Source of the DNA: Microbotryomycetes sp. JL201
Taxonomy: Eukaryota; Basidiomycota; Microbotryomycetes
Direction: 5' to 3'
Assembly (NCBI GenBank): GCA_033819885.1
Contig: JAQYUZ010000029.1
Span: 124,001-188,000, forward strand
DNA length: 64,000 nt
Part shown: positions 1-11,650 of the stretch, piece by piece
Position numbering within the stretch: position 1 is the first letter of the stretch
Layout of the letters: every line of letters begins with the position of its first letter
Notes under the pieces: model-generated
What the model was told of the DNA's origin: nothing
The model's database searches: none
What the model saw: the letters and a program-made list of their open reading frames with translations, nothing else
Program-made: the position numbers and the translations under genes

Positions 1-2584
1 TTCAGCAAGCCGACTTGCCACCTTCGCCCACTCCTACGCCGACCGGGCCTTCACATCTCTTGACGGCCATGCGCAACAGAGCCATCTCCCCGCCAACCCC
101 CGCGCCGTCACCACAGCCGCATGGGCAGAGGCAACGCTTGTACTCGAGCCTTGCTTGGTCGTCCCAATCTAGCGACTCGACCGCGCCCAAAGGTTCGCTC
201 GAATCACTCGAATCAGAAGACGTCATCATTCAAGCCATACGAGATCAAGTCGGTGCACTGTCCGGAACGGCAAGACAACGCTTGCTCGCGCTTCTGATAT
301 CCGACTCGCCGCCGTCAGCTCTGTCGCCCTTGCTTCCGCTGATCGCACCTCGGCTTAAGCGTGATTTCCTCAAGACGTTACCAATCGAGCTCGCCTACCA
401 CGTGCTGTCGTTCGTAGATGACGTCAAAACACTCGCACGTGCATCAATGGTCAGCAGATTCTGGCGCGACTTGCTCGAGGACGAAGGCACGTGGCGCAGA
501 ATGTGCTGGCGACGCGGCTTTGGGGACTTGGAAACGGGCATAGATGGTACAGCAACGCCATTTTCCAAAATCAAACACCTTGAATTCGGCGAACGAGAAG
601 ACGACCTTTATACGCCCGCAGGCAGAGAACGCAGAGGCACGCTCGAGCGCGCCAGCTTGCTTCAGTTTGCAGCGCGTGCAGAGTCATTTGGGTTGAGAGC
701 GAATATGGAAGGAGACGACATGGCGATCGACGGCGAGCTTCGCTGGCAGAATGGTTCTGGGTTTGACCTAGACGGAAGCGGCAGTCCAAGACGGGGTTCA
801 ACTGGACTAGGCATCGGCGCCAGCGTCGGAACAGAGCCCGCTTCATTGAAAGCACGGCGAGCTTCAGCCTTGATGACGGCCAATTCGCCCATGTCGGGAT
901 ATTCTGGCTCACAGCAAAGGGAGAACCTCGCGTCCCCGCCACTGCGGCCTTTTCCTGGTGACACACCGTCAGCGTCTCCGGCTTCTGAGCCAGTCACGCG
1001 CCCTTCTTCGTCGAGCCGCAAAACGGTCTCTTACAAAACGCATTTCAAGCGCGCCTATCTGACCGAGTCGGCGTGGCTGCGAGGGCCCGGTCGATTGCTA
1101 TCGACGCAGATGAGCTCTGAAGACGGAGTTGTTACCAGTCTCGGCTTTGACAACGACTGGATCGTCGTTGGAATGGCCACGAGCAAAATTCACGTCTTTG
1201 ACGCCAACAATGGCCATTACAGTAAAACTCTCGAGGGACATGAACTTGGCGTATGGTGTTTGACGTTGGTGACTCGGGGTGGGGGACCGAGAAAGACTGG
1301 GACGAAACTCGCAAATAGGATGCAAGCAGAGTCATTGGACTCTGCAGGCAGAAATTACGCTCTTGATGACACGGCATCACTTTCAGGGGCGAGTCCGCCA
1401 TTGCAACGGCGGCGATCGTTTCAAGGGTTCACGTCAGCTGGGGCAGCCGCCACCGGCCCTGCAACACCGGGACGATCAGGTGGAATGGGTTTGGGAGCGG
1501 GTGGCGAGACCGGCGATGGATCGCACCAGTCTTCTGTATGTGGAACTTCCAGAGGCTGGGGACAAGAGCACTCGATCGTCGTCAGTGGCGGATGCGACAG
1601 GGCCGTTCGTGTCTGGGACGCCGACACTGGGTGAGCGCTTTGCATTCCGGACGCATTTCTCATCCTCTGACCGCTCCTCAGTATCTGTAAACATGTCCTG
1701 CGCGGCCACACGTCGACTGTGCGCTGCATGCGAGTGCTCGACGGCAGACCAATTGCTGTATCTGGCTCTCGGGATTCTACGTTACGTGTGTGGAATATTG
1801 AGACGGGCGAGGCGATACACCAACTCGTCGGCCATGAGCATAGCGTCAGATGTATCGACGTCCATGGGGACAGGGTCGTCAGCGGCAGCTACGATTCAAC
1901 ATGTCGAGTGAGTGCGCCGCAAGAAACGTGATGCGCCAGACGCTTATCATCTTCCTCAGCTCTGGGATCTGAGCACAGGTCAGTGCTTGCAGGTGCTTCA
2001 AGGCCACCAACATCAGATTTATGCTGTCGCGTTCGACGGCATACGCATCGTTACTGGTAGTCTCGATTCGACCGTCAGAGTTTGGTCCGCTGAAACAGGC
2101 CAAGCTCTGGCGCTGCTCCAAGGCCACACCTCTTTGGTCGGCCAGGTCCAAATTGACCCCGTGTCGAATATACTCGTCACTGGTGGATCTGACGGACGAG
2201 TGATCGTCTTTTCGCTCAGCTCGTTTGAGCGAATTCATGGATTGTGCGCGCACGACAATTCGGTAACTTGTCTCCAATTTGATGAGAGGTTTATTGTCAC
2301 CGGTGGCAACGACGGTCGGATCAAGCTGTGGGGTCAGTCCTGAATGTCTCTCAGAATCACGATGCACGCTAACATTTCGGCTTTCAGACTTCAAGACGGG
2401 CGCATACATTCGCGAACTGGCCGAACCATGCGACTCTGTCTGGCGTGCAGTCTTCCGTGACGACAAATGTGTCACGCTATGTCAACGCGACGGCAAGACA
2501 CTCCTTGAAGTCAAGACTTTCAGACCGTCAGATAAACAACTCCATGGCGTTGCATCGGTGAAAAATCAGGCTCAAGTGGCTTAA
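1..2584 (+). CDS. F-box/WD40-repeat protein, Cdc4/Pop1/Fbw7-like (5' partial)
   Basis: Substrate-recognition subunit of an SCF ubiquitin ligase by family knowledge. The frame is open from the window edge, so the N-terminus may lie upstream; an internal ATG is at 69. The F-box is around 376-520 (LPIELAYHVLSFVDD then SRFWRDLLEDEGTWRRMC). A Ser/Pro-rich linker follows, then WD40 repeats with GH and WD signatures (GHELGVWCL, SGGCDRAVRVWD, SGSRDSTLRVWN, TGSLDSTVRVWS, TGGNDGRIKLWD). Exons read as 1-1630, 1682-1907, 1960-2331 and 2388-2584; each join restores a WD repeat, for example DTG/ICKHVLRGH and IKLW/DFKTG. F-box plus about seven WD repeats matches Cdc4/Fbw7 order. The substrate, for example a cyclin or CDK inhibitor, cannot be told. 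It is convergent with the surface-protein gene at 2758. Confidence 0.9.
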
Positions 2585-2757: not shown

Positions 2758-3846
2758 TCAGAGGACGATGGCACCGACGATGCCGACCATGCCCAGCAGA
2801 GCAGTAGCCCGAGCGACGTGCTTGTTAGCTGGAGCTGCGCCAGTCAACCTGTTTGAGCTCGTCGATTGAGGGCGTTGAGATCCACCTGATAGTGACAAAG
2901 ACGATTGGGTGGCTGCGCGACTCGTTGGAGGTGCAGTGGTCGGAGTCGCTGGTGGACGAGTGACAGTGTTGGTGGTTGGTGGAGTCGTATTCGGTGCGGC
3001 AGATGTAGAATCGACCATGACGACGGTAGAGGACGTATCGTCCTCGATGGTACTGGTATCAGCTCCGTCCGTTGAAGTGACAGGATCGTCGGAAATGATT
3101 GGATCAGTAGGTTGATCAACCGGATCGGTCGGGTCAGTAGGATCATCCGTGGGATCGGTAGGATCGGTCGGGTCGGTCGGATCAACTGGCACATAGCTGC
3201 ACAGTTGTGCAGCCTCTGCAGAGCGCGTGCACGTTTGTGAGCTTGATGTTCGCGGATTCTTGGTGCGTCAACTTACGCATGGATGCCTCTTCGCCTGCAT
3301 CGCCATAGCATAGACCGCAATTCTTTGGGGTCAAATTTTGTCAGCTCTATGAGCTACACCTTGAAGAGAGGACGGCGCGTACCATCATGTTGGCCACTAC
3401 ATCCGCTCCGCAAGCGCAAGTGCCTAGGGATTGTGCATCTGTCGTGCTGGTGATGCAGTCCTGGAGAACCCAATTCAGAGACGTGTCCAAAGTCCTGTCG
3501 CCCAGTAAGAAAAAGGTCTTACTTGGATTGTGCCCACCCACGGGGCGCACTCGGACTGGCACTCGCCAGTCGCTTGACCTTGAATTGCGGACGCCAACAG
3601 ATTTTGCAGACCGGTGATTGCACCAGAGACGTCGCCTTGACGCTTCCCGAGGCTCAGCGCGCGTCTTTCGAATGCCCGAGTGAGCAAAGTGCCACCGTGA
3701 TTAGGCGCGGGAAGGGCATTGATCACTGCTGCCAGGACCATGATCCGTGATTAGTGCTGCAAAAAATTTTGAGCGTTACTTGGAGGCTGCTTGTGCTCAC
3801 AAGCTGACGCGGCGGCCAGTATGATGACTGCTGACGGGACAAGCAT
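2758..3846 (-). CDS. Secreted eight-cysteine GPI-anchored surface protein, copy 1 (CFEM-like)
   Basis: Five exons. Exon 1 (start ATG at 3846) gives a signal peptide (MLVPSAVIILAAASA). The joined protein has cysteines spaced C-x3-C-x9-C-x12-C-x-C-x10-C-x2-C-x15-C, with a Trp three residues after the second Cys and a CG-x-C pair. A Pro-Thr-Asp repeat stalk (about eight PTD units) and a Ser/Thr-rich region follow. The C-terminus is a short hydrophobic GPI-type tail (ATALLGMVGIVGAIVL). The cysteine number resembles CFEM domains of fungal surface proteins, but the spacing differs from the usual CFEM consensus, so the family name is tentative. It is the first of three tandem paralogues ending at 7531, with introns at matching positions. 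Likely role: cell-wall or surface protein; no ligand can be inferred. Confidence 0.8.
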
Positions 3847-4513
3847 TGTAAAATCGTATGCAAGCGCGAGATGAGGTAAGGGAAAGAGGCGCGCGGAAGT
3901 GTGTTGGATGGAGAAAGAGACAGGTAAACAGGATACTGTTCTCTTTTATGTCTGTGGTGCACGGGAAGCGACATCTGGCCCGAGAGCCACCCTCGAGGCT
4001 CTGAAACACCGCCACGCTGGGGTTACGAAACGAGCTCGGCGTTCAAACACAGCCGCTTGATTCGAAGCTTTGGAGTACTCAAAGTACATGAGGCGGTGCT
4101 ATGGTACCGTATGCTTGCATGTCTTTGCTTCCCGGGGTCTGCTTCACCGAAAGTCACCATCCCGCTAGGATACGAACGGGCGACCGTATCTCCGATGAGC
4201 ATCCGATGGATCTTGCAATGCCACAATGTCGGCTTCGGAAAGCTGACTTGCTCTCACTGTCATTCACCAATCGGTGCCAAACAGTGGAAGAAGTATGAGC
4301 GAGCACGGCTCACTTGGATTTCAAGGAAATACGGCCAGCATGAATACGAAAATTCATCTCGTCTTTTGATTAAAGACCGCCGTTAAAGACGATCTAGAGA
4401 TTCTTTGGGATAATGAAAGGAGAAAAGAGTACGCTTGGTGAGGGACAAGGTCCGGTCGCGGATAATGTGAAATGTGAGAACCAAACATTGGATTGTCTTG
4501 GTTAGGGTCAAGT
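3847..4513. other. Intergenic, upstream of surface-protein copy 1
   Basis: This 667-base gap lies between the start of copy 1 and the stop of copy 2, both minus strand. It should hold the copy 1 promoter and copy 2 terminator. Short ORFs here (for example 4057-4386) lack any recognisable motif, and I see no gene, tRNA or repeat. Confidence 0.5.
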
Positions 4514-5566
4514 TTAGAGAACCAGGGCGCCGACGAAACCAGCGACAGCGAGAACAGCGCCAACGGCGGCACCGTTGTGGTTGGCACCGCTGGTAGGCTG
4601 GGCACTAGGAGAGTTGCTAGGGGCAGCCTGGGTGTTTGAGCCGGTGTTGGCAGCCGAAGAGGGAGCCGAGCCTGAAGCAGTGCGGGACGACGACGATTGA
4701 GCAGGATTTGATGACGACGCAGCAGACGATCCAGCAGACGACCCAGCAGACGAGGCGGCAGATGAGGCGGCAGACGAAGCGGAAGACAGACCGCCCGTCT
4801 GAGCGCTCGAGGGAAGGGCGCTGATTGCCTGCGAACAGATGCTGGCGACGCCTGCGATACGAGAATTGCTCAGCTCGGCATGTCGAGCTGGGTCGACAGA
4901 AATGGCTCACCATCAGCGGCCGAGGACTGCGAAGAGCCGAGGCAAGATCCGCAAGACTGCATTCGAGGCAATCTGTCAGTGAATGTACATGATCGGCTTA
5001 GCGCTCAGGCCGCGCATACCTGCATCGCCGAGACAGTGCTCTGTTGGCACGCGCACAATCCGATGTCTTCGTTGTTTGTGTTGCTCGTGACACAGTTCTG
5101 TCGGAATGCGATTTTGTCTGTCAGCGAGTGACGGGGCGCACGTGCCGCTGCTGCGCGCCGCCGCGCGACGCGAGCCGAGCGCGTTCAGGCGCAAGCTTGT
5201 GACTGACTTGGATTGGCGTGACCCAGCTGCCGCACTCTTGTGAGCATTGTCCGCTGCCTTGGGCTGCCGTCAGGGCGTCCCTCAGGAGGCCCTGCAAGTT
5301 TGCGAGAGTCGACGAAAGGTCTTGGCGGCGCGCGAGTTTCTGATAGAAAGCACTCGACAATGACGTGCCGATCAGCGCGTGGCCACTCGTCTGAGCAGCA
5401 ACGACGGCTAAAGTGCATGTGAGAGACGGTCAGCGCACGTGTTTTTGCATCTAACCCACGCGCGTATACGACTCGCGCATGGGCCGCGGACTTGGCCCAT
5501 CACATGTCATGCGCAATACATACCGGCGGACGCAAGAGCAGCAACAGAAACAGACAGTCTGACCAT
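4514..5566 (-). CDS. Secreted eight-cysteine GPI-anchored surface protein, copy 2
   Basis: Assembled from five exons; most lie in frames without an internal ATG, so simple ORF calling misses them. The signal peptide starts at 5566 (MVRLSVSVAALASA). The cysteine module has exactly the spacing of copy 1: 3-9-12-1-10-2-15 residues between successive cysteines, with ECGSWVTPIQ aligned to ECAPWVGTIQ and the CG-x-C pair kept. A long Ser/Ala stalk with SSAAS-type repeats follows, then a GPI-like hydrophobic tail (GAVLAVAGFVGALVL) ending at 4514. Introns after IQ, after MQ and after the ADG block sit at the same places as in copy 1, which shows tandem duplication of a spliced gene. Probable surface protein; function unknown. 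Confidence 0.8.
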
Positions 5567-5928
5567 GTTGTGCGATTGAGTGTGAGGAAAGAGTAAGAAA
5601 ACGATAAGCGGCGAGCAAAAGTGGGGCAGCGCTCGGCAGCTGCGCCGGAACAGAGCGCAGCCAAAATTAGAAAATTTTCGGTTTCAACCAAGGGTTTCAA
5701 AGAGGACAGGTTTCGAACACGACGTCATTGAAACTTCAATTAAATGTTGTTGGCGACACTCTCGTCCGCAGTCCAGTCCTCTGGACACTCTCCGGACATC
5801 CGCCCCCCTTGAAAAGCGTCTTAGTGGGCATTGGTCAAGACAAAAGCTACAGCAGACAAGAGAAACCGGGTATACTTTCCGTTGGAACTGAATAAGGCTA
5901 CAAGATCATCGTGCGTCCCTGCACTAGG
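5567..5928. other. Intergenic between surface-protein copies 2 and 3
   Basis: This 362-base stretch should contain the copy 2 promoter and the copy 3 3' end. I see no gene or repeat in it. Confidence 0.5.
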
Positions 5929-7531
5929 TTAACGCGGCGACGAATGGGCACTCCGTCCGGCGCTCGACATGAGCGAGCTGCGACGCGAGGTTTCTGCGCT
6001 TACATAACTTGATGCGCGATTCTCATCATTGAATGGAGACATGGCTTCGTTCGCCGGGTCGACAGATTCGTTCCATAAGTTTTCGCGCGGGATCGCAGGC
6101 AATACGGGAGGATCCCTGCTCGTCTGAGTCACGTGCGACCACAAAGACGGACGACGTTCAGACGTTTCCGTCGGGCTGCCACCGCCGAGAATTGGACTGT
6201 TCTGTTGCTGCCTCTGGGTTCGTCGGCGCCTCCTGACAAACATGATGGCAGCGAGGACGAGAGCGAGCAAGACGATGCCACCAATGACACTGCCAGCCGT
6301 GATCGCGCCGATGTTGTTCATGCCCTGACCCGAAGCAGGCGTCGAAGACGCACTAGGCACGGCAGCAACGGCCACATTGTTGGTAGCAGCGGCTGTTCAA
6401 TTTTCCGAAGCATCAGAACGGGTTCATCCGACTGGGCGAACTAAAACTTGCCACTGAGCGGTGTGGTTTCGCTGATGGGCACGACAGCTTCCATTTGCAG
6501 AGACGCAGTCGTTGAAGAAGCTGGAGCAGAGGTCGCGGACGACCTGCTAGCGATTGGAACGTACGTGATGCTCGCGCGCGAGGCCGACGAGGCCTGAAGG
6601 GAGGCCAATGATCCGATCGATGACACTGAGGCTGTCAGGTAGCCCTTTCAGTGCACGGCTCCTTGACATGAATATTTGTCTTACAGCTAGCGACTCGCGA
6701 GTTAGATGCGATCGTAGGAACGATGTGATTCGCGCAGTATCTCGAAACGTCTGTGGCAGGTCGCTCATCAGTACGGGCGTGATTCGATCAGAAAATCTTG
6801 ACATACCCAGAGCACTCTGGTAGTTCAAAGGGCCAAAGCACTGACCGCATGTCTAACGAAATTATTGTCAGCTTAGCAGATCGAGTCTGCAATCTTCGAC
6901 CAGAACGCACCTCCATACTCTGGACTACACTGCTGGAACAGGCGCACGCTTCCACCGCTCCTACATCTGTATTGGTGTACACGCATTGCTATTCAACACC
7001 AGCCAAGAATTTCCCAGTTAGTGACGTGTCCCTCAGCGCGAGGCAACTTGAGCACTCGGGCCGGCACAAATTGCCCAGATGGGAAACTCGTGAGCGGGCC
7101 CTCTGTTTACTTGATTCGTGCAAGCTCGGCCCTCATTCAATACGAAATGTGGGACAATGGGAAAGGGTACTCACCCTGACTGCGAGAACCCAGGGTGAAC
7201 AAGCTTGAGTGCAAATATTGGTCGCCTGACCGGCAATGGCCATCTGCAGCAGATCTTGGAGATCACTTGCGGCTTGAGCGAGGTCTTGTGGTACATTTTG
7301 ACGTTTGGTGAATACACGTAACAAAGCAGCACTGTCCATGTCATTTGCTTCCGGCGCGAGCGCCATTGCCAGAGCCGCTTTAAAGCGAGACATTTCAAGC
7401 GGGACGAAGACGGGTCGAACGATCAAGGGTTTTGAGCATGTCAATGCCGTGCAAGAACGCACCGAGATGGCTGTTGACATGTACTTACGGAATGCAGCCA
7501 CCGCAATCAGTTTGGTCGCTGCACCTCGCAT
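5929..7531 (-). CDS. Eight-cysteine surface protein with transmembrane helix and cytoplasmic tail, copy 3
   Basis: Third tandem paralogue, about seven exons, start at 7531 with signal peptide MRGAATKLIAVAAF. The module keeps all eight cysteines with spacing 3-9-12-1-10-2-16 when the third intron ends at TTAG before ACATGC, giving ETCGQC. A Ser/Ala stalk follows. Instead of a GPI tail it carries a hydrophobic helix (AGSVIGGIVLLALVLAAIMF) followed by RRRRR and about 90 polar, Ser-rich residues, which is typical of a single-pass type I protein with a cytosolic tail. The intron joining stalk to helix (6393-6451) begins with GC (GCAAGT donor); the join LS/AAATNNVAV keeps the frame. By its shape it could be a wall sensor or receptor; this is inference from architecture only. 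Confidence 0.75.
6393..6451 (-). other. GC-AG intron in surface-protein copy 3
   Basis: The donor reads GCAAGT and the acceptor ends AACAG. Removing these 59 bases joins the Ser/Ala stalk to the transmembrane exon in frame. No GT donor nearby does so while avoiding the stop at 6441. Confidence 0.75.
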
Positions 7532-7856: not shown

Positions 7857-7952
7857 TGACGAGAGTGGGATTCGAACCCACGCCCTTTCGGACTGCGGTA
7901 CCAGTCGATGAAAACCTTAACACAGCGCCTTAGACCGCTCGGCCATCTCGCC
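7857..7952 (-). tRNA. tRNA-Leu(AAG) with a 16-nt intron
   Basis: On the minus strand the acceptor arms GGCGAGA and TCTCGTC pair, including one G-T. The D arm is GCC...GGC with the A-box GGCCGAGCGGTC. The anticodon stem is CTGTG/CGCAG with loop TTAAGG...C, so the anticodon is AAG. A 16-base intron (TTTTCATCGACTGGTA) follows position 37, the usual site of nuclear tRNA introns. The long variable arm (TCCGAAAGGGCG) and T arm with GGTTCGAATCC are typical of leucine tRNAs. Seven T residues on the transcript strand (7850-7856) directly follow and fit a Pol III terminator. Confidence 0.93.
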
Positions 7953-9102
7953 TATAGCCAATTCTGGCTACTTGTGCATATATATAGTGTTGCGTAAAAG
8001 CCCGAAATTATGTCTTCTGATCACTCTCAAACTTTGTCCTGAGCTTTTGCGACATTTTCAAAATGCAGGGGGGAGGGCGGCGACAAAACACCTCCTGTCT
8101 TTGTTTCCGGCGCTCCGAGCCTGTCCATCTCCACCTATACGGTCAGACCCAGGAAACGCTCAGGGCGGAAGAGGATGAAGGCGTCTTGCAGCTCCACAGT
8201 TTGTCAACTCTATCGCACGTCAACTAGTGCGCTTGGGCATGCTTGATGAGTGATTCGATCGGGATTCTGCTATACGTAGTCGTGGACCAGATGATCCTCA
8301 ATTCCGTCGAGGGGTTCGAATATTGCAACTATTCGTTCGATAGTTCAATAGCGAGTTGCAGCAAGCGAGTTCAGCGACGCGGGATCGGGCGGGTCACAAA
8401 ACTGGTCACGAAAAGAACACGAGCAAACGCAAACGTTATATGACCTACCGTTTCGCTCGCGGATTGAGCATGACATACATGTTCACAGTTCTAGCAAGCA
8501 ATGGCATGAAGTTGAAGCAAACAAGACACTCACGATGACGGAAAGCATGATTGAACAGACTCAAGCTGCCTGTCGCTCAGTGTAATCAATCACCTTCGCT
8601 CCCCATCCGGGGACGCGGAAACGCGAATTTAGCCTGCTTTCGAGCTGCGCAGGCTTGAGTCGGATCGCAGGCGTCTGATAGATGCACCTTGATCGCGCAA
8701 TCGACAAGGCATTGTGAGCGTCTTGATTAACACGTTGAGCAGGGGGAAACGGGATTTATGAGCTATGCGTTATACCACAGCATAGCATTACCCACCAATG
8801 GATGTGCAAGTTCCAGCGAGCTCTCAAAGCATAGTTCGACGTGACGTCGAATGAATCTGTCTTCAGGAGTTCGAGCTGGACCATGTGCTTCTGTACTGAA
8901 AGCAGCAGATGTTCGAGACCTAGCTCTCAAGATGAAAGTACATGAGAATGTCTCTCGCATGTATTTCCAAGACAGGAGGTGCCGACTTCGGGCGACTCGG
9001 AGGTCGTCTGAGCGGTGCGAGCGCCGTTTCTGTCGTCGATCGCGACGCCGAGACACTTCTCCCACTTGAAGTTCGGCTGCTGTGGGCTCTATACGGCTCG
9101 CC
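7953..9102. other. Intergenic region upstream of tRNA-Leu and BRF1
   Basis: About 1.15 kb. Several small ORFs (8243-8443, 8763-9104 minus, 8851-9069) show no domain and mostly overlap each other. The last 300 bases should hold the BRF1 promoter. I cannot support a gene here. Confidence 0.45.
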
Positions 9103-11650
9103 ATGTCGACGCGGTTCTGCTATAGCTGCGAAGAGGACCGACTGGTCGACACTGATGGCGCTCAAACGGTCTGCACGGCATGTGGCATGGTGAGTCGCGA
9201 CTTGGGCCATTTCAGCCTGAGCTGCGAGGCGCTGTACACTGAACTTGTGCCGTCGTTGGGTGGCTGTCGCTGATTCTCTTGCCCACGGCTGTTTTGGACG
9301 TGCCGTTGCACCGCTTGCACGCGTTTTGTTCGCCTACCAGGTCCTCGAGGATAATGCTATAGTGTCTGAAATCACTTTCGGCGAAGCTGGATCAGGCGCA
9401 GCGGTAGTGCAAGGCTCGTACATTGGCGCCGATCAGAGTCAGTCGGCATCTGCTACGCGTGGAAGGCCAGAATACACGTTGCTGACAATGTGGCACCACT
9501 TTGTCCCGCCCACTAGCCCGTGCCAGAGCGCCGGCAGGCTACAGGGGTCGAGGAGGCGGTCAGGAGTCACGTGAGCAGACACTCGCCAATGGCAAGTTGA
9601 TCTCAATGTGCCCTCAGTCAGCGAACCTGTGCTAATGGTATGTCGCTTTCAGGACGCAACGAAATCAATAGGCTCGCGCACAGCTTACGCTTGCCTGAAC
9701 GTTTGGCCGACGCCGGCTTGCGATACTTCAACTTGGCGGTCAACATGAACTTTACGAAAGGCAGGCGCACCACGTACGTCGTAGCGGCGTGTCTTTATTG
9801 CGCTTGCAGGATGGACAAGACGAGCCACATGCTCATAGATTTTTCGGACCCGCTAGCGGTGAAGTTTGCTGCTCGGACGTAAGCGATTCGCTCTCACTGA
9901 CTCTCGTTCGACTTCAGATCAACGTCTTTGTTCTCGGATCCACCTACCTCAAGCTCGTACGCGAACTATCGCTGCAGCTTCCAGTCGTGGATCCGTCACT
10001 TTACATTTCGCGCTTCGCTTCCATGCTAGACTTTGGTGAGGAAACTCAAAAAGTGGCCCAAGACGCCGTTCGTCTGGTCGCTCGCATGGGTCGAGACTGG
10101 ATGCACATCGGTCGACGACCAGCCGGCATCTGTGGCGCCTGTCTCTTGCTGGCTGCTCGCATGAACAACTTTCGTCGGTCCGTGGCAGAGATTGTTCAAG
10201 TCGTCAAGATTGCCGACCAGACGCTAAGAAAAAGGTTGAAAGAATTTCGAGAGACGCCAAGCAGTACATTGTCAGTAACGGCGTTTAGGACGCTGTGGTT
10301 AGACGAGACAGCGGATCCTCCAGCATTCACGAAGAATAAGAAGGCGAACGAAGAGCCAACCGGTTTGAGAAGGGTGCGCAAGGCTGCTGCTACTGGCGGA
10401 GACAAAAGCGTCGGTACTGGCCCAGAAAAGGATGCTGCTGCTGGCGAAGACCAGAGCCTTGCAGTGGATCTTGCTGTGCCGTCTTCCGATGCAGACCAGC
10501 AAGAGGACGCGGAGCATGGGGAAAGGCTGGACGACCTCAATGCTTTGGCCGATGCTGCCGAAGAGGCTGCCTCACGTCAATCAATGCCACCGCCGCCTGT
10601 GCCATCAGCAAAGTCTCTCGGCAAACGCAAGCGTGTCTCGCTGTTCAAAGCCGACGACAACGAACAGTCGGACCCGGAAGATACGGAACACGATGACGAT
10701 GCGCAAGAGTCGGATGACGACGACGAGGCACATTTAGACGCACCTGCATTGGACGATGCCATTCGCGAGGAAATGAACGAGACGCTTGAAGGCGCAGATG
10801 GACAAGCATTGACCCACGAGCTGGACGAGGCGGATGCCAAGAGACAAGCCGAAGTATTGCAGAGGAATGCTCTGTACAACTCGCAGCCGCTCGACAGCTC
10901 CACTCGCTTGGACGACTTGGATGAGGAAGAGCTGGACGCTTTCATTCTCACACCGGAAGAGGTCGAGGCAAAAAGTCGTTTGTGGATGGAGTTTAACAAG
11001 GACTATCTCAAGCAGCTTGCAGGTCCGTGTCCGGACTCTTGAAGACGCGTGAACGTTTGACTGATCCGACAAAGTACAGATAAACAAACCGGACCGGATG
11101 GCGAGCTGAAACCAGTGACTGCGCGTCGCCCAGTGAGTACGAACGATCTGATGCGAGGTCAACGCACTGAACATGAATGTAAAATTCCCTGCAGCGCAAG
11201 AAAATCAAGCCGCGAGATTCGAGCACGCCTCAGGGCGTCTCCGCGGCTGATGCGACCAAGCAGCTCTTGACCAAGAAAAAGTTTTCCAAGAAAATCAACT
11301 ATTCTGCGATCGAGGATCTATTTGGTCGAGATTCTGCAGCGTCTTCTGTCGCTGGCAGTGACGACGAGAACGAAGATCCTGCTCAAAGCAGGTCCCGCAG
11401 GAGTGCGAGCGTTTCCAGTCGAGCGTCGCAGAGAATCAATTACCCTACTCCGACATTCAGAGGTCGGTCACGAGCTCAGTCGCGAGCAAGCAGTATTGCT
11501 CCGTCGTTGCCGCCGACGCCGTCAATGAACTCGCGTCACTTGGGCGCTGACGAGTTTGAAGAACATGAAGAGCAAGAGGTCCCAGAATGGCGCAGAATGT
11601 TTGGCCGAGGCAACCAAGATGCAGAAGAAGAGACGTGGGATGAGTTGTGA
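9103..11650 (+). CDS. BRF1: TFIIIB subunit Brf1 (TFIIB-related factor)
   Basis: Recruits RNA polymerase III with TBP and Bdp1. Seven exons (9103-9189, 9341-9437, 9538-9591, 9653-9858, 9918-11022, 11080-11132, 11195-11650) give about 685 residues with all phases consistent. N-terminal zinc ribbon: FCYSC...TVCTACG. The Brf1 hallmark SREQTLANG is followed by two cyclin folds (TKGRRTTYVVAACLY, then RDWMHIGRRPAGICGACLL). The second fold ends LRKRLKEF. A long acidic region follows, then the C-terminal Brf1 block KKINYSAIEDLF around 11289-11325, which binds TBP. The third intron (9592-9652) has a GC donor. The Pol III-transcribed tRNA-Leu upstream is probably a coincidental neighbour. Confidence 0.95.
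9592..9652 (+). other. GC-AG intron in BRF1
   Basis: The donor GCAAGT and acceptor CTTTCAG join the conserved motif EQTLANG to RNEINRLAH, matching the continuous NGRR...L block of other Brf1 proteins. Conservation across the join makes this the best-supported GC-AG intron here. Confidence 0.88.

What the first reader, a model, noticed from the sequence alone, without database searches (positions are those of the whole stretch)
2758..7531. Tandem trio of surface proteins with fixed eight-cysteine spacing but different membrane anchors
Seen directly: copies 1 and 2 share the cysteine spacing 3-9-12-1-10-2-15 exactly and copy 3 differs by one residue (16 at the end). Signal-peptide exons and intron positions match in all three. 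Stalks are unrelated (PTD repeats, Ser/Ala repeats, Ser/Ala). Two end in GPI tails, while the third has a helix, five arginines and a long Ser-rich cytoplasmic tail. A shared ectodomain with GPI decoys and one transmembrane form is a pattern seen in receptor/sensor clusters. The spacing does not match the usual CFEM consensus, so this may be a distinct module.
Basis: partly seen in the sequence, partly recalled or inferred. Interest (0 to 1): 0.72.

Follow-up and report, generated by a model that had tools for sequence, protein, structure and literature searches.

The report
Eight-cysteine fungal surface protein family
Three neighbouring fungal genes make cell-surface proteins that share one eight-cysteine domain but are held to the cell in different ways; they belong to an unnamed family with a second gene cluster elsewhere in the genome, a modest find whose function still has to be tested.

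Summary
The first four introns match in position and phase (1-0-0-1). Copies 1 and 2 end in GPI-like tails; copy 3 has one transmembrane helix, five arginines and a 102-residue tail. New: a Kex2-like KR/RR-Q site precedes the domain, and the family is larger than the trio. The same genome holds a six-copy tandem array (C56, 5.7 kb) and a probable singleton member (C1), with partly shared intron sites. Similarity beyond cysteines links trio and array (array HMM: c1, c2, c3 each beat all 200 Cys-fixed shuffles) but not the family to CFEM. No Pfam match above cut-off falls on the domain, whereas two CFEM genes of this genome match. By sequence it is a separate family with a CFEM-like cysteine order. 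The 'GPI decoys' reading is untested. I favour wall-anchored paralogues plus one Wsc-like membrane sensor, an inference. Spread in other fungi, structure and ligand could not be tested here.

The parts
2758..3846 (-). copy 1 (c1), 277 aa, 5 exons: 3846-3801, 3728-3523, 3460-3383, 3322-3277, 3215-2758; eight-Cys domain, PTD-repeat stalk, GPI-like tail
   Evidence: model; splice alternatives; hydrophobic last 17 residues; stalk repeat
4514..5566 (-). copy 2 (c2), 234 aa, 5 exons: 5566-5524, 5407-5208, 5097-5020, 4956-4911, 4851-4514; eight-Cys domain, Ser/Ala-repeat stalk, GPI-like tail
5929..7531 (-). copy 3 (c3), 359 aa, 7 exons: 7531-7489, 7377-7175, 6988-6911, 6852-6807, 6750-6685, 6631-6452, 6392-5929; eight-Cys domain, Ser-rich stalk, one transmembrane helix, VRRRRR and a Ser-rich cytoplasmic tail
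3199..3561 (-). c1 eight-Cys domain, Cys1 to Cys8 with introns (residues 72-131)
4835..5246 (-). c2 eight-Cys domain, Cys1 to Cys8 with introns (residues 69-128)
6734..7213 (-). c3 eight-Cys domain, Cys1 to Cys8 with introns (residues 70-129)
3640..3645 (-). c1 Kex2-like site, Lys44-Arg45 before Gln
5325..5330 (-). c2 Kex2-like site, Arg41-Arg42 before Gln
7301..7306 (-). c3 Kex2-like site, Lys39-Arg40 before Gln
6238..6288 (-). c3 transmembrane helix, residues 241-257 (highest hydropathy); VRRRRR follows from 6237
6393..6451 (-). GC-AG intron (GCAAGT...CAG) of c3, between stalk and juxtamembrane exons
   Evidence: the only frame-keeping choice found within 30 nt
3122..3183 (-). PTD-encoding repeat of the c1 stalk (period 9/18)
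4713..4787 (-). Ser/Ala-encoding 12-bp repeat of the c2 stalk (5-6 copies)

Best explanation
A fungal family of wall-exposed surface proteins made by tandem duplication. Each has a hydrophobic N-terminus taken as a signal peptide (weak in two array copies) and, in c1-c3, the singleton and one array copy, a Kex2-like propeptide site; then a compact module of probably four disulfides, in most members a Ser/Thr-rich and presumably O-mannosylated stalk that reaches through the wall, and an anchor. GPI forms stay in the membrane or are linked into the wall as structural or ligand-binding proteins. The one transmembrane form (c3) most likely works like a Wsc-type sensor: the module engages wall material or a neighbouring GPI copy, tension or crowding is passed along the stalk through the helix, and the arginine- and serine-rich tail recruits or is phosphorylated by signalling partners. 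Shown from sequence: gene models, shared module, intron sites, anchor types by hydropathy, second array. Inferred: Kex2 cleavage, disulfides, glycosylation, GPI processing, and every step of sensing.
For: Trio models, identical spacing and intron sites. Homology beyond cysteines within the trio and from the array HMM to c1, c2, c3, each above all 200 Cys-fixed shuffles (for c2 narrowly, 27.5 against a best shuffle of 26.0 bits). Six-copy array plus singleton, 5 of these 7 with GPI-like tails. Kex2-like KR/RR-Q before the domain in c1, c2, c3, C1 and C56_3. Sequence after Cys8 is 24-37% Ser+Thr in the 8 proteins measured, tails included. c3 has its hydropathy peak at 241-257 followed by VRRRRR, a 102-residue tail with 25% Ser/Thr, and RRPS and RRSS sites. 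The layout of signal peptide, Cys-rich head, Ser/Thr stalk, helix and tail matches Wsc sensors as described in PMC9148135 (passages). The same review says CWI components of C. neoformans are conserved except the sensors (passages), so unrecognised sensors are plausible.
Against: No expression, localisation or phenotype data. A single-pass helix with arginines is common in fungal surface proteins (recalled), and this genome has another such reading frame at C15 with no sign of the domain, so the layout alone proves little. c3 matches no WSC model (E up to 10), and this genome has WSC domains (three matches at C25). The phylum of the fungus was not established: searches for two mating families rang nowhere, not even in controls. 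With the trio HMM, C56b, C56_1, C56_2 and C56_3 are reached by 3, 11, 17 and 12 of 200 of their own shuffles; pairwise, c1-C56a (88 of 1000) and c3-C56b (57 of 1000) are not significant. Splice sites were chosen by eye with the cysteines in view.
Confidence: 0.42

Rival explanations
1. Divergent CFEM-fold proteins: same fold as CFEM, perhaps binding heme, iron or another small ligand, passed from wall-linked GPI copies to the membrane form as in the Candida Rbt5/Pga7 relay.
For: Same order of eight cysteines with a CxC at positions 4-5; c1 3-9-12-1-10-2-15 against 3-9-6-1-11-4-15 for this genome's CFEM1: 4 of 7 gaps equal, a fifth within one residue. The singleton C1 has an Asp three residues before Cys4, as CFEM1 does (read). 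Precedent: ferric reductase N-termini are predicted to take the CFEM fold with six of the eight cysteines and low sequence homology (PMC9635878, passages).
Against: No CFEM Pfam match in 10 of 10 family proteins (3 of them given as N-terminal parts that hold the domain) while 2 of 2 controls match. hhalign probability 0.45 and 0.38%, within permuted controls (22 of 100 reach it). CFEM genes do not exceed their Cys-fixed shuffles with family HMMs. Cys6-Cys7 gap is 2 rather than 3-4 in all 9 intact copies. The consensus Asp spacing is not met in c1-c3, though c2 has an Asp four residues before Cys4. No introns shared. Limits of this negative: the CFEM profile had 3 sequences, and the two true CFEM genes reach each other only weakly in the pairwise test (20 of 1000 shuffles as good).
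Confidence: 0.25
2. Plain wall mannoproteins or adhesins: duplicated, stalk-diversified surface proteins with structural or adhesive roles; the transmembrane copy is only another way of anchoring.
For: GPI-like tails in 7 of the 10 modelled family genes (c1, c2, C1 and four array genes), Ser/Thr-rich stalks with short DNA repeats in c1 and c2, a tandem array with a degenerate member (C56_4).
Against: The 102-residue cytoplasmic tail of c3 with repeated basic-Ser motifs is more than an anchor needs; the tightly kept spacing suggests a constrained module.
Confidence: 0.25
3. Host-interaction proteins (surface effectors) of a plant- or animal-associated fungus.
For: Cysteine-rich, secreted and in tandem arrays; CFEM proteins are often reported in such roles (search listing with abstract starts).
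Against: Most members (8 of 10 modelled) appear anchored; neither the organism nor its lifestyle is known; no host-related evidence in any call.
Confidence: 0.06
4. Artefact of hand-made splicing.
For: No transcript data.
Against: At most 3 frame-keeping alternatives per intron within 30 nt under the donor and length limits used; the trio and array genes separately give homologous intron sites, though the cysteines were in view when sites were chosen.
Confidence: 0.02

Closest known systems
CFEM domain (Pfam PF05730; Rbt5, Pga7 and Csa2 of Candida albicans)
   Same: Fungal, extracellular, eight cysteines in the same order with CxC at Cys4-5; many members GPI-anchored.
   Different: No profile match; Cys3-Cys4 gap 12-14 (8 in C1) without the consensus Asp spacing in c1-c3; Cys6-Cys7 gap 2 instead of 3-4; no P-x-C-[A/G] start; other intron sites than this genome's two CFEM genes.
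Wsc-type cell-wall sensors (WSC domain, Pfam PF01822)
   Same: Layout of c3: signal peptide, Cys-rich head, Ser/Thr-rich stalk, single helix, cytoplasmic tail.
   Different: No WSC match in the head; the head is shared with GPI-anchored paralogues.
HAM-7 of Neurospora crassa
   Same: [quoted passage not shown] shows that a GPI form need not be a decoy.
   Different: Sequence not compared here.
Signalling mucins (Msb2)
   Same: Glycosylated extracellular region, one transmembrane helix, short intracellular tail (PMC9148135 section 2.2); listed for Ustilago maydis and Cryptococcus neoformans (table passage).
   Different: No Cys-rich module mentioned in what I read; sequence not compared here.

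Membership tests
CFEM (PF05730) | Match to the Pfam CFEM model above its curated cut-off | tested here: not met
   0 of 10 family proteins (C56a, C56b and C1 given as N-terminal parts of 117, 117 and 176 aa that hold the domain); 2 of 2 control genes of the same genome match at E 2.9e-10 and 4.2e-9
   0 of 10, also without the P and [A/G] terms and without the Asp rule. Of the two controls, CFEM1 passes only the relaxed forms and CFEM2 none, so the strict pattern is itself a weak test
CFEM (PF05730) | Eight cysteines with CxC at Cys4-5 | tested here: met
   9 of 10 family genes; C56_4 has lost the CxC
CFEM (PF05730) | Sequence-profile relationship to CFEM proteins | tested here: not met
   hhalign probability 0.45 and 0.38%; HMM scores within Cys-fixed shuffles in both directions, nearest C56_3 with the CFEM HMM (3 of 200 reach it) and CFEM2 with the trio HMM (7 of 200); reference profile shallow, 2-3 sequences
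CFEM (PF05730) | Helical heme-binding fold with Asp ligand | not testable with these tools
   Structure prediction admits only proteins read letter for letter from the window; the domain is spliced from four exons. No job was sent
Wsc-type sensor | WSC domain (PF01822) | tested here: not met
   No WSC among c3's matches at E up to 10; the genome has three WSC matches at C25
Wsc-type sensor | Signal peptide, Ser/Thr stalk, single transmembrane helix, cytoplasmic tail | tested here: met
   c3 only, by hydropathy, not by a trained predictor
Wsc-type sensor | Activates the cell-wall-integrity pathway | not testable with these tools
   Needs mutants
GPI-anchored protein | Hydrophobic stretch at the very C-terminus | tested here: met
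   c1 and c2; also C1, C56a (weakest, 1.66), C56b, C56_1, C56_2 (hydropathy); omega sites not predicted

The most novel reading that the evidence does not exclude
The module defines an unrecognised family of fungal wall proteins in which one paralogue of this cluster has gained a transmembrane helix and signalling tail, so that GPI copies and the transmembrane copy form a wall-to-membrane sensing set; this could be one of the missing surface sensors in lineages without clear Wsc/Mid2 sensors.
Probability: 0.1. Interest if true: 0.68.

Novelty: new variant of a known kind. Interest (0 to 1): 0.36.

Why it matters
It gives a clean, testable definition (cysteine spacing, intron sites, gene clusters) of a fungal surface family that the Pfam copy used here does not recognise, and one member has the architecture of a sensor. 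Fungal stress-pathway sensors diverge more than the pathway core (PMC2666651, passages), so unannotated candidates of this kind are where missing sensors could lie. If the domain proves to be a CFEM fold, it would widen that superfamily.

Tried and rejected
Rejected: (1) the 16-residue last gap in copy 3. (2) CFEM membership (see membership table). (3) 'GPI decoys': no evidence. (4) Weak Pfam matches, all below cut-off: c3's DUF6479, EphA2_TM, TM_ErbB1, Sensor, CcmD and MGC-24 cover the helix or its neighbourhood; c2's Plasmodium_Vir (E 1.4) is mostly stalk. On or across the domain: UCR_hinge (0.092) and NIP_1 (0.12) in C56a, DUF5874 (0.042) and zf-TAZ (5.7) in C56_2; REC104 in C56b overlaps only its start and Rv2743c in C1 lies before it. 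I took these as chance. (5) PDB matches of the family profiles (E 0.21-9.7): chance level. (6) Hits at C44:58287 (E 0.036) and C15:233646 (E 0.098): no family pattern seen, so not counted; the patterns need CxC and its neighbours in one reading frame and would miss a gene split like the trio, so this is not proof. For the same reason my pattern scan of the whole window does not exclude further copies.

Led nowhere: relatives in bacterial/archaeal genomes and in viral contigs (97 and 26 pattern matches, none confirmed); neither collection is fungal, so this says nothing about spread. STE3, mating-pheromone and Mid2 searches rang nowhere, including controls. Literature: no paper naming this family was listed (openly licensed PMC papers; listings and abstract starts seen).

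Not done: structure prediction and fold search. The stated rule admits only proteins read letter for letter from the window (or from loci of certain tools); these are spliced, so no job was sent.
Full report
Observation. The three genes were spliced from the minus strand: c1 3846-2758 (5 exons, 277 aa), c2 5566-4514 (5 exons, 234 aa), c3 7531-5929 (7 exons, 359 aa). All 3 of 3 have exactly eight cysteines, spaced 3-9-12-1-10-2-15. For the 14 introns of the trio, one search lists 0 to 3 frame-keeping alternatives each (donors GTNNGN or GCAAGT, any AG, length at least 45), so the models are well constrained, but no RNA data exist and the sites were chosen by eye. Introns 1-4 have phases 1-0-0-1 and the same places in 3 of 3. 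The last intron of c3 is GC-AG.

Anatomy. c1, c2 and c3 carry KR-Q, RR-Q and KR-Q before the domain, a typical Kex2 site (recalled), so the mature head probably starts with Gln. A stretch LQ-x-LL precedes Cys1 in the trio, and LQRLI in the C1 singleton. The stalks differ: a 9/18-bp PTD repeat in c1, a 12-bp Ser/Ala repeat in c2. c1 and c2 end in hydrophobic tails of GPI type; c3 has its hydropathy peak at 241-257, then VRRRRR and a tail of 102 residues with 25% Ser/Thr, RRPS and RRSS (PKA-like, recalled) and four S-P motifs. Signal peptides were judged by hydropathy only; in the array, C56_1 and C56_4 show no N-terminal peak above the threshold used.

Family. Searches of the 17.15-Mb genome led to two more loci. 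On contig C56, six genes on one strand lie in 190682-196379. Five keep the eight cysteines: C56_1 5-9-13-1-10-2-25, C56_2 5-12-12-1-10-2-25, C56_3 5-12-14-1-9-2-25, C56a and C56b 5-9-12-1-10-2-25. C56_4 has lost the CxC. Four have GPI-like tails; C56_3 and C56_4 have no anchor. On contig C1 a singleton reads 3-8-8-1-10-2-29 (plus one Cys in the signal peptide) with a GPI-like tail. The phase-1 intron in the fifth codon before Cys8 is in 3 of 3 trio and 5 of 6 array genes; the phase-0 intron one codon before Cys3 in 3 of 3 and 3 of 6; that one codon before Cys6 in 3 of 3 and 0 of 6; the phase-1 signal-peptide intron in 3 of 3, 5 of 6 (first exon of C56_2 uncertain) and in C1, which shares only that one. 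C56_2 has further cysteines upstream of the domain.

Strength of the link. An HMM of five array copies scores c1, c2 and c3 above all 200 of their Cys-fixed shuffles (c2 narrowly). The trio HMM does so for C56a, C1 and C56_4, but not for C56b (3 of 200 shuffles reach it), C56_1 (11), C56_2 (17) and C56_3 (12). The array HMM does not clearly find C1 (7 of 200; trio plus array 3 of 200) but does find C56_4 (0 of 200). In the pairwise test (C56_1 to C56_4 not included) trio-C56a/b counts were 88 and 5 of 1000 for c1, 0 and 5 for c2, 1 and 57 for c3; trio-C1 counts were 9, 6 and 15; C56a-C1 228 and C56b-C1 7. Membership of the weaker ones therefore rests on array position, cysteine order and introns, and C1 is probable rather than proven.

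CFEM. Two genes of this genome match Pfam CFEM (spliced proteins E 2.9e-10 and 4.2e-9). None of the 10 family proteins does (three given as N-terminal parts). Profile-profile probability is 0.45 and 0.38%, 22 of 100 Cys-keeping and 13 of 100 full column permutations reach the real score. HMM tests in both directions stay within shuffles, the nearest being C56_3 with the CFEM HMM (3 of 200) and CFEM2 with the trio HMM (7 of 200); the lowest family-CFEM count was C56b-CFEM2 (27 of 1000). These tests have limited power: the two true CFEM genes reach each other at only 20 of 1000, and the CFEM profiles had two or three sequences. The two CFEM genes, as modelled, share no intron site with the family. 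The cysteine order is the same, and five of seven gaps are equal to or within one residue of CFEM1 (3-9-6-1-11-4-15); ferric reductases suggest that the CFEM fold can outlive sequence similarity (PMC9635878, passages). Verdict: not CFEM by sequence, fold open.

Mechanism. c3 has the layout of a Wsc-type sensor as described in PMC9148135 (passages; section 2.2 read), but no WSC domain, though WSC domains exist at C25. Another reading frame of this genome, at C15, also shows a helix followed by RRRR without sign of the domain, so the layout is not special to this family. GPI copies may be wall proteins or co-sensors; HAM-7 shows that a GPI protein can itself sit upstream of a MAP kinase. 'Decoy' has no support. 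Sensing by c3 is inference from architecture.

Limits. No fungal collection could be searched, so spread is unknown; scans of prokaryote genomes and viral contigs confirmed nothing and could not be expected to. The phylum is unknown (silent with silent controls); that it is a fungus rests on the two CFEM genes, CFEM being reported as unique to fungi (PMC4530338, passages). Structure prediction was not possible under its rule. The flanks are a WD40 protein gene and a Brf1-like gene, and a tRNA gene.

Verdict. A real family of fungal surface proteins, unnamed in the searches, with an eight-cysteine module whose spacing is identical within the trio and varies moderately elsewhere; a new variant of a known kind. 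Interest is moderate, and would rise if the transmembrane copy proved to be a sensor or if the module were shown widespread.

Noticed in passing
G000:C56:190682-196379 (L025): Six-gene tandem array of the same family, including one copy without anchor (C56_3) and one that has lost the CxC (C56_4).
   Followed up: yes
window 7857-7952, minus strand: tRNA gene just upstream of copy 3; ARAGORN gives no clear anticodon (aagg); by eye a tRNA-Leu(AAG) with a short intron.
   Followed up: partly
G000:C53:35047 (L029): CFEM gene modelled with only six cysteines (CxC reduced), GPI-like tail.
   Followed up: partly
G000:C56:264966 (L028): The eight-cysteine CFEM gene lies on the same contig as the six-copy array, about 68 kb away.
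   Followed up: no
G000:C25:77919-79065: Three WSC-domain matches close together, probably one multi-WSC gene.
   Followed up: no
G000:C15 near 233646, minus strand (L047): A reading frame with a Ser-rich stretch, a hydrophobic helix and RRRRER, like the end of c3 but with no sign of the eight-Cys domain.
   Followed up: partly
window 1-2584 and about 9100-11650, plus strand: Flanking genes: a WD40-repeat protein cut by the window start, and a Brf1-like transcription factor.
   Followed up: partly
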